DNA of 64,000 nucleotides from an uncultured Gemmatimonadales bacterium (GTDB lineage Bacteria; Gemmatimonadota; Gemmatimonadetes; JACCXV01; JAHWKZ01). Position 1 is the first letter of the stretch; each line of letters opens with the position of its first letter. Under the pieces are notes generated by a model. That model was not told the DNA's origin and searched no databases. It was given only the letters and a program-made list of their open reading frames with translations. The stretch lies in the NCBI GenBank assembly GCA_947259315.1, contig CAMYLR010000019.1, forward strand, positions 1-64,000. Direction: 5' to 3'. The translations under genes were made by a program, and so were the position numbers. Shown here piece after piece: positions 34,735-36,318 of the stretch.

Positions 34735-35706
34735 CTACCCCAGCTTGTGAATCGTCGCGCGAGGAGCGGGAATCACGGCCGCCCGGACATCGCCGTTACC
34801 CGAACCCGACGGCTCCGCCGCCGCACCGTATGGTCGCTCGGGTCCACCGCCGTTGCCGCGAACGATCTTGACGCCGGCGCTGGCTCCGATCCTGGTCGCA
34901 CCGGCCTCGATCATCTTGAGTGCGGTTGGCTGGTCGCCCACTCCACCGGCGGCCTTGACGCCCAACTCCGCACCGACCGCGCGGCGCATGAGTCGGATGT
35001 CATCCTCGGTCGCACCACCCGGCCCAAAACCGGTCGACGTCTTTACAAAGTGAGCCCCAGCGGCCTGCGCCAAGACGCACGCCTTCACCTTTTCCTCATC
35101 GGTCAGGTATGCAGCCTCGATGATCACTTTTACCTTGGCTCTCCGCCTCGCCGCCTCGACCACACCGCGGATGTCTCGCTCGACCTCGCTGTACGCGCCC
35201 GACCGAAGCGCCCCCACGTTGATCACCATGTCGAGCTCTGCGGCACCATCTTCGAGCGCGCGGATCGCCTCGTACGCTTTGGTCTCGGATCGATTGGCGC
35301 CCAACGGAAAACCGATCACCGTACAAACCCGAACCGGCGTGGTCGCCAACCTCTCGACCGCCAATCTCACCCACCACGGGTTGATGCACACGGTGGCGAA
35401 ACAGAACTCTACCGCCTCATCGCAGAGCGCCTCGATTTCTTGCTGACTGGCTGTTGGCGCGAGCAACGTATGGTCGATCATGCGAGCCAAAACGTTGTCA
35501 CACGCATCGACGCCTGGGCCGGCGGTGAACCGGTCCGCACCACACGCCGCCAAGCGGCGCACCTTGTCAGCGCAGTGGGCTACGCAGTGCGAACCATCAC
35601 AGCGGTCGCAGGCACCCAGCGCGTAAGACGTCCCGCTCGCGAGCTGCGTCCTGAGCTCGGCCGCGATCAGGTCGGCCAACAGATCGATGTTCGGACCAGT
35701 TGTCAC
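34735..35706 (-). CDS. deoC: Deoxyribose-phosphate aldolase with microcompartment-type N-terminal extension
   Basis: 323 residues, about 100 longer than ordinary DeoC. The catalytic core (about 74-285) is complete: Asp159 in AELDMVINVG, the Schiff-base Lys222 in FVKTSTGFG and Lys251 in GVKAAGG. It cleaves deoxyribose 5-phosphate to glyceraldehyde 3-phosphate and acetaldehyde. Residues 6-23 (NIDLLADLIAAELRTQLA) form an amphipathic helix like encapsulation peptides, followed by cysteines 33, 36, 41 and 45 (CDRC, then CVAHC). A flexible Gly/Pro-rich tail (284-306) ends in a short VRAAVIPAPRATIHKLG peptide. It is ATGA-coupled to an EutN/CcmL gene, suggesting packaging into a microcompartment (inference). 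Confidence 0.93.
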   Translation of the reverse strand: MTTGPNIDLLADLIAAELRTQLASGTSYALGACDRCDGSHCVAHCADKVRRLAACGADRFTAGPGVDACDNVLARMIDHTLLAPTASQQEIEALCDEAVEFCFATVCINPWWVRLAVERLATTPVRVCTVIGFPLGANRSETKAYEAIRALEDGAAELDMVINVGALRSGAYSEVERDIRGVVEAARRRAKVKVIIEAAYLTDEEKVKACVLAQAAGAHFVKTSTGFGPGGATEDDIRLMRRAVGAELGVKAAGGVGDQPTALKMIEAGATRIGASAGVKIVRGNGGGPERPYGAAAEPSGSGNGDVRAAVIPAPRATIHKLG

Positions 35707-35993
35707 TCTTGCAAACCGGTTGAGTCCAAGAAGTCGATTCGATCCACCACACCAATGACTAGGTTCTGGAGCGGAACCCGCTCACGACCCGTAACAAGCC
35801 GAGCCCCAGTCCCCTCGCGAGAGACAAGCACCTTGTCACCGATACCGGCGTCGACCCGGTCAACGGCGATCATCTCTTCGCCTTCGTCGCGACCATCGAT
35901 CGCCAACGGTTGAACGACCAGCAGCTTGTACTCCGCCAGCTCGGGGTCCTTGTCGCTGGACGTGACGGTTCCGGTCACCCGCGCGAGGATCAT
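35703..35993 (-). CDS. EutN/CcmL bacterial microcompartment vertex protein (BMC-P) 2
   Basis: 96 residues from the ATG at 35993, which overlaps the stop of the first vertex gene (ATGA); the frame is open to 36098 inside that gene. Start [13 protein letters not shown], middle KLLVVQPL, then MIAVDRVDAGIGDKVLVSREGTGAR and C-terminal LVIGVVDRIDF are the signature of the pentameric EutN/CcmL fold, which caps the vertices of polyhedral protein shells. Its own stop overlaps the deoC ATG. No BMC hexamer (BMC-H) or BMC-T gene is in this window. Confidence 0.9.
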   Translation of the reverse strand: MILARVTGTVTSSDKDPELAEYKLLVVQPLAIDGRDEGEEMIAVDRVDAGIGDKVLVSREGTGARLVTGRERVPLQNLVIGVVDRIDFLDSTGLQE

Positions 35994-36256
35994 GTCCGGT
36001 CGACCGAGTCGATCTTGCCGACGATCGCCGCATCCACCGCGCAGAAGGGATCCCTTAACGGCAACGAAGCTTCGCGGCTGGTGACATAGTAGACCCACTC
36101 ATCATCACCGTAGGATCCCGTATCCACGGCCACCAGCGGCTTGGCGGAGGGTTGCCCTTCGGCGTCAGTGGGCTCGATCCATAGCAGCCGATAGCCGACA
36201 AGCGGCTCGATCTTGCGGGTGCTCACCACCCGCCCAATCACACGTGCAAAGTGCAT
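35990..36256 (-). CDS. EutN/CcmL bacterial microcompartment vertex protein (BMC-P) 1
   Basis: 88 residues. [47 protein letters not shown] and a C-terminal [12 protein letters not shown] match EutN/CcmL, though the pore-loop region is more divergent (DEWVYYV in place of the usual GDxVLV). First gene of a three-gene minus-strand operon (vertex 1, vertex 2, deoC) with 4-base overlaps throughout. A short inverted repeat (CCCGG at 36259-36263, CCGGG at 36277-36281) sits right before its ATG. Divergent from dnaK across a 168-base gap. Confidence 0.85.
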
Positions 36257-36318
36257 GGCCCGGAGAGTATCCCTCCCCGGGCAGCGCCGTCAACTGCCAA
36301 AATGACGCATTTTCGGCG

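What the first reader, a model, noticed from the sequence alone, without database searches (positions are those of the whole stretch)
34735..36256. Microcompartment vertex pair with a DeoC that looks built for encapsulation
Three ATGA-coupled genes encode two EutN/CcmL vertex proteins and a DeoC whose extra N-terminus has an amphipathic helix (residues 6-23) followed by cysteines at 33, 36, 41 and 45, plus a flexible C-terminal tail. Seen: family motifs, overlaps, extension. Known: EutN/CcmL proteins close the vertices of microcompartments, and amphipathic terminal helices direct enzymes inside; DeoC occurs in sugar-phosphate-utilising microcompartments, where acetaldehyde would be confined. 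Inferred: this is a satellite locus, since no hexamer or other cargo gene is here. Two vertex genes without BMC-H is unusual; the cysteine cluster may bind metal or a partner.
Basis: partly seen in the sequence, partly recalled or inferred. Interest (0 to 1): 0.85.

Follow-up and report, generated by a model that had tools for sequence, protein, structure and literature searches.

The report
Microcompartment satellite operon with encapsulation-type DeoC
Three linked genes encode two corner proteins of a bacterial protein organelle and a deoxyribose-splitting enzyme with a probable packaging tag; the rest of the organelle is encoded elsewhere in the same genome, so this is a real but largely already described kind of satellite gene set.

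Summary
Window 34735-36256 (minus strand) is an operon of two BMC vertex genes (PF03319) and a true deoC; the first overlap is ATGA, the second GTGA. The genome (Gemmatimonadota-like, 2.4 Mb) also carries a EutL/EutM/EutE/EutD-like shell-and-enzyme operon on contig C4, and a third vertex gene on C6 coupled to cytidine deaminase. The satellite inference is therefore right and both refutation criteria fail. The DeoC extension (helix 7-23, linker, Cys cluster, GAxR helix) occurs across some ten phyla. Of 50 genomes tested, 36 of 40 with the extension have shell genes against 1 of 10 without it (phylogenetically clustered sample). Satellites of two BMC-P plus an aldolase, and EP-like extensions on such aldolases, are already published for HO-type BMCs (PMC8217296). 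The consolidated set fails tested features of the HO and SPU types and fits the fragmented FRAG class best. The cdd-vertex linkage and the Cys module were not found in the main text of the two surveys. Function is inferred: deoxyribose-5-phosphate to acetaldehyde to acetyl-CoA. Cautions: no DeoB found, the BMC aldehyde dehydrogenase is frameshifted in this assembly, and ethanolamine ammonia-lyase was not searched genome-wide.

The parts
35990..36256 (-). BMC-P1 (EutN/CcmL vertex protein), 88 aa, ATG start
   Evidence: PF03319 74.5 bits; orthologue in the same position in G051, L012/L104 and G079
35703..35993 (-). BMC-P2 (EutN/CcmL vertex protein), 96 aa, ATG start inside the ATGA overlap
   Evidence: PF03319 88.2 bits; conserved pair order P1-P2
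34735..35706 (-). DeoC, class I deoxyribose-phosphate aldolase, 323 aa, GTG start inside the GTGA overlap
   Evidence: TIGR00126 267.7 bits; 60-62% identity to solved DERA structures, TM about 0.95 on the barrel
35638..35688 (-). DeoC residues 7-23: predicted encapsulation-type N-terminal helix
   Evidence: AF2 helix; conserved hydrophobic pattern in the family
35572..35610 (-). DeoC residues 33-45: cysteine cluster C-x2-C-x4-C-x3-C
35521..35571 (-). DeoC residues 46-62: second short helix and GAxR segment
   Evidence: G56 and R59 nearly invariant in alignment A1
34738..34854 (-). DeoC residues 285-323: disordered C-terminal tail ending in VIPAPRATIHKLG, shared only with same-family relatives
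36266..36293 (-). promoter-like site TTGACG-16-GATACT just upstream of BMC-P1
   Evidence: consensus match only; 1 found against 0.3 expected

Best explanation
The operon is a satellite locus of one dispersed microcompartment. BMC-P1 and BMC-P2 form pentamers that cap shell vertices together with the third BMC-P on C6. [quoted passage not shown] Acetaldehyde is kept inside and converted by the BMC-type acylating aldehyde dehydrogenase and the phosphotransacetylase encoded on C4 to acetyl-CoA and acetyl phosphate. Coupling deoC to vertex genes, and cytidine deaminase to the third vertex gene, would tie organelle closure to deoxynucleoside supply. Shown here: gene identities, linkage, conservation, and association of the extension with shell genes. 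Inferred: encapsulation, in vivo substrate, and co-assembly of the three loci into one shell.
For: Shell genes in the same genome: two-domain BMC-T, two BMC-H, three BMC-P. A EutE-like aldehyde dehydrogenase and a EutD-like PTA share the C4 operon, and the aldehyde dehydrogenase bears a similar N-terminal helix. DeoC is the only DeoC of its kind in the genome: one further PF01791 hit, which did not match in the DeoC protein search. Barrel and catalytic segments intact. Among 50 genomes of DeoC relatives, 36 of 40 with the extension and 1 of 10 without it have PF00936. Of the four exceptions, two carry BMC-P next to deoC (L012, L033), one has a close relative with shell genes (L027/L024), and one (L046) has a decayed extension and no PF00936 hit. 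P-P-DeoC order recurs in G079 and in Riflebacteria L050, and DeoC-P-P in Chloroflexi. The extension is under purifying selection between congeners (pN/pS 0.13; core 0.09). cdd overlaps the third vertex gene, an arrangement shared by G052, G054 and G079.
Against: No DeoB found in a 96% complete genome, so the source of deoxyribose-5-phosphate is unclear. The BMC aldehyde dehydrogenase reading frame is broken by a 25-base gap relative to two relatives; this may be an assembly error or a real defect. Two same-family genomes (G052, 94% complete; G054, 81%) have the C4-type operon and cdd-BMC-P but neither DeoC nor the vertex pair, so DeoC is not obligatory there, unless both assemblies miss this operon. 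The extension/shell association rests on few independent origins (2-4 changes on the tree). Single-sequence amphipathicity is not significant.
Confidence: 0.75

Rival explanations
1. The organelle is primarily a EUT-like (ethanolamine) or generic acetaldehyde metabolosome, and DeoC is an occasional second acetaldehyde source added with a vertex pair.
For: The C4 operon has a EutL-type BMC-T and an EutM BMC-H over their NCBIfam cut-offs, a EutE-like aldehyde dehydrogenase, a EutD-like PTA and a partial EutQ match. Relatives G052 and G054 keep this operon without DeoC. PMC8217296 describes EUT modules as satellites of HO and SPU BMCs.
Against: No EutBC was noticed in the ORF lists around the C4 and C6 shell loci or in the window (read by eye from partial sequences, not searched). 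Vertex 3 is closest to the 5v74-type vertex rather than EutN.
Confidence: 0.3
2. DeoC is cytosolic; its extension is a domain unrelated to encapsulation, such as an oligomerisation or metal-binding module, and the vertex genes are neighbours by chance.
For: Cysteine cluster typical of metal sites; the helix alone is not significantly amphipathic.
Against: Translational overlaps, recurrence of the gene order in several phyla, association with shell genes, and decay of the extension in L046, whose genome has no PF00936 hit.
Confidence: 0.1
3. The BMC is decaying or non-functional in this organism.
For: Frameshifted aldehyde dehydrogenase; no DeoB.
Against: No break was seen in the other BMC genes and the window operon is under purifying selection; the sequence downstream of the frameshift still reads as the conserved C-terminus up to its stop, which suggests an assembly error or a very recent event.
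Confidence: 0.1

Closest known systems
HO type I BMC satellite locus (two BMC-P plus aldolase; PMC8217296)
   Same: Same gene content; EP-like N-terminal extension reported on some HO-genome pfam01791 aldolases; third vertex gene nearest to 5v74.
   Different: The only BMC-T found here is EutL-type, whereas HO BMCs share BMC-T(dp); the third vertex gene sits with cdd.
SPU (sugar phosphate utilization) BMC
   Same: DeoC signature enzyme and a BMC aldehyde dehydrogenase; a same-class relative (G091, L178) has a full SPU-like locus with extended RpiB, DeoC, CcmP-like BMC-T, BMC-H and BMC-P.
   Different: No extended RpiB, and genes dispersed over three contigs; the window DeoC does not group with the same-class SPU DeoCs.
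FRAG BMCs (PMC8217296)
   Same: Shell genes scattered over several loci, three BMC-P, reported from Gemmatimonadetes.
   Different: FRAG BMCs are described as lacking an obvious signature enzyme; here DeoC is linked to vertex genes.
EUT metabolosome
   Same: EutL-, EutM-, EutE- and EutD-like genes in one operon.
   Different: No ethanolamine ammonia-lyase noticed near the shell loci; not searched genome-wide.

Membership tests
BMC-P (EutN/CcmL) vertex proteins | PF03319 domain over the gathering score | tested here: met
Deoxyribose-phosphate aldolase (DERA, class I) | equivalog score and barrel fold with the Schiff-base lysine segment | tested here: met
   TIGR00126 over cut-off; structure match; VKTSTGF motif invariant
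BMC satellite locus | shell gene(s) with or without enzymes, distal from the main shell locus in the same genome | tested here: met
   window on C19, other shell genes on C4 and C6
[quoted passage not shown]
   definition from PMC8217296
HO BMC (type I) | shared BMC-T(dp) of CsoS1D/CcmP kind | tested here: not met
   the only BMC-T found is EutL-type; PF00936 can miss cryptic N-terminal domains but should hit the C-terminal one
SPU BMC | encapsulated or locus-linked RpiB together with DeoC | tested here: not met
   two RpiB, unlinked to shell genes and without the extension
FRAG BMC | shell genes in several genomic locations with three BMC-P | tested here: met
   three loci
FRAG BMC | BMC-P triplet from the gray and orange clades plus one other | not tested
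   clade trees of PMC8217296 were not rebuilt
EUT BMC | ethanolamine ammonia-lyase EutBC | tested here: inconclusive
   not noticed in the ORF lists around the shell loci or in the window; no genome-wide search was left
Encapsulation peptide | about 15-20 residue amphipathic helix joined by a flexible linker | tested here: met
   isolated helix 7-23 and low-confidence linker; family-averaged amphipathicity, though weak in this sequence alone
Encapsulation peptide | binding to shell protein and loading of cargo | not testable with these tools
   needs experiment or complex prediction

The most novel reading that the evidence does not exclude
A dispersed, nucleoside-fed microcompartment class in which deoC and cytidine deaminase are each translationally coupled to a vertex gene, and DeoC carries a conserved helix plus Cys/His metal- or redox-binding module that gates its packaging; it would supply the missing signature enzyme of many FRAG BMCs (Gemmatimonadota, Ignavibacteria, Kryptonia), where extended DeoC is often unlinked to the shell genes.
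Probability: 0.3. Interest if true: 0.65.

Novelty: new variant of a known kind. Interest (0 to 1): 0.45.

Why it matters
FRAG-type microcompartments are described in the survey as lacking an obvious signature enzyme. A tagged DeoC in one operon with vertex genes, in a genome whose shell genes are scattered, points to deoxyribose-phosphate as the substrate and gives a direct test. It also offers a sequence marker (helix plus GAxR module on DeoC) that tracks shell genes even when they are unlinked.

Tried and rejected
SPU membership: rejected, no extended RpiB. HO membership as a whole: not claimed, BMC-T is EutL-type. Alternative signature enzyme in G052 in place of DeoC: the extra gene in its shell operon looks like a prolyl oligopeptidase by its sequence, judged by eye from an ORF list without a family search. 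Synteny test for real loss of the operon in G052/G054 failed, because the flanking oxidoreductase gene is not recognisably present there. Cysteine cluster as an obligatory part of the module: rejected, several extended DeoCs lack it. Recent fission from a same-class SPU locus: not supported by the tree. Paper searches for the Cys module or for a cdd link in BMCs found nothing.

Full report
What is there. On the minus strand of the window, 36256 to 34735, three genes run head to tail between a divergent dnaK-like gene and a convergent oxidoreductase gene (neighbour names by eye). The first two are EutN/CcmL vertex proteins (PF03319, 74 and 88 bits against a cut-off of 25) and the third is a deoxyribose-phosphate aldolase (TIGR00126, 268 bits against 117). 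The genes overlap by ATGA and GTGA; the aldolase starts with GTG. The aldolase barrel (residues 73-283) is ordinary: about 60% identical to solved DERA enzymes, with TM-scores near 0.95 normalised to the target. It carries about 70 extra residues at the N-terminus and about 35 at the C-terminus.

Where the rest of the organelle is. The genome holds four PF00936 domains in three proteins on contig C4 and a third BMC-P on C6. The C4 operon encodes a two-domain BMC-T, a BMC-H with a C-terminal extension, a ParA-like ATPase, a 107-residue protein with a partial EutQ match, a phosphotransacetylase, a BMC-H and an aldehyde dehydrogenase. NCBIfam places the BMC-T as EutL and one BMC-H as EutM over their cut-offs, and matches the aldehyde dehydrogenase and the PTA to subfamily models over their cut-offs that I read as EutE-like and EutD-like. 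The third vertex gene overlaps a cytidine deaminase gene by four bases and is closest to the vertex protein of entry 5v74 (E 2.4e-28; that this is the Haliangium ochraceum shell is from my own knowledge).

The extension. AlphaFold2 on an alignment of 34 homologues gives an isolated helix at 7-23, a low-confidence stretch through the cysteines, a weak helix at 46-54, and a confident barrel. Across DeoC relatives from public genomes the same plan recurs in Ignavibacteriota, Bacteroidota, Kryptoniota, Chloroflexota, Eiseniibacteriota, Auribacterota, Riflebacteria, Acidobacteriota, Calditrichota, Bacillota and Gemmatimonadota (in Riflebacteria and Bacillota the start and first helix were not resolved). 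G56 and R59 of the GAxR segment are nearly invariant. The cysteine cluster (C-x2-8-C-x2-5-C-x2-4-C/H/N) is present in most but missing in several, including four same-class Gemmatimonadota DeoCs, so it is an optional addition. For the window sequence alone the hydrophobic moment is unremarkable; over 37 aligned N-termini, including that of the genome's own BMC aldehyde dehydrogenase, it is higher than in 98.7% of column shuffles. The extension is conserved at the protein level between congeners (pN/pS 0.13 against 0.09 for the barrel). The C-terminal motif VIPAPRATIH[KR]LG was seen only in the same family.

Association with shells. I classified extensions from the DNA upstream of the barrel and searched the 50 source genomes for PF00936. 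Of 40 with the extension 36 have shell genes; of 10 without it one does (Fisher p 2.6e-6). The extension needs only 2-4 changes on the tree, so this p-value overstates independence. The four exceptions are informative: L012 and L033 have BMC-P genes beside deoC, L027 belongs to a lineage whose relative L024 has shell genes, and L046 has lost the helix and the cysteines in a genome with no PF00936 hit. In Gemmatimonadota relatives, four genomes (G077, G080, G091, G101) have the extended DeoC within a few kilobases of shell genes, and G079 has the same three-part dispersal as here: P1-P2-DeoC, cdd-BMC-P, and BMC-H genes with an aldehyde dehydrogenase, although its DeoC has a different long N-terminus without the GAxR segment. 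In Ignavibacteria, the BMC-H pairs that I fetched have no BMC aldehyde dehydrogenase, BMC-P or DeoC beside them, which is the FRAG pattern.

What it most likely does. DeoC makes acetaldehyde and glyceraldehyde-3-phosphate; an acylating aldehyde dehydrogenase and a phosphotransacetylase complete a metabolosome core (established pathway knowledge; PMC4207490, PMC8217296). Encapsulation of DeoC and assembly of the three loci into one shell are inferences.

Difficulties. No DeoB was found, so deoxyribose-5-phosphate must come by another route or the gene is in the missing 4% of the genome. The BMC aldehyde dehydrogenase is out of frame after a 25-base gap relative to two relatives, although the downstream sequence reads as the conserved C-terminus in another frame. 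Two same-family genomes have the C4-type operon and cdd-BMC-P but lack both the vertex pair and DeoC. This is either linked loss, which would support a functional unit, or a gap in both assemblies; a synteny test could not tell. Ethanolamine ammonia-lyase was not searched genome-wide, which keeps the EUT rival open.

Comparison with what is known. [quoted passage not shown] The window operon therefore belongs to a described kind. The consolidated set does not meet the tested features of HO (BMC-T type) or SPU (RpiB), and fits FRAG best. The cdd-vertex coupling and the Cys module were not mentioned in the main-text passages I searched; the supplementary data of these papers were not available to me.

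Noticed in passing
L010:9804-10477 (G000 contig C6): Cytidine deaminase gene overlaps the third BMC-P gene by 4 bases; the same pair is adjacent or overlapping in G052, G054 and G079, and in an Ignavibacteriales genome cdd directly follows a BMC-T gene (L194:9195-10155).
   Followed up: partly
L008:14359-15770 (G000 contig C4): BMC aldehyde dehydrogenase reading frame ends early because of a 25-base gap relative to G052; the downstream sequence still reads as the conserved C-terminus in another frame.
   Followed up: partly
L008:11811-12946: ParA-like ATPase and a 107-aa protein with a partial EutQ match inside the shell operon; possibly a positioning system like that of carboxysomes.
   Followed up: no
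L008:11218-11814: BMC-H with a long C-terminal extension ending in a winged-helix-like segment, reminiscent of EutK by eye; BMC-H plus extended BMC-H pairs recur in Ignavibacteria (L188, L190, L191).
   Followed up: no
L178:5576-6370 (G091): RpiB with a 115-residue N-terminal extension that weakly matches the 107-aa EutQ-like protein of the window's genome, inside an SPU-like locus.
   Followed up: no
window 34738-34776: The last 13 residues of DeoC (VIPAPRATIHKLG) are conserved in same-family relatives while the linker before them varies, suggesting a short linear motif.
   Followed up: partly
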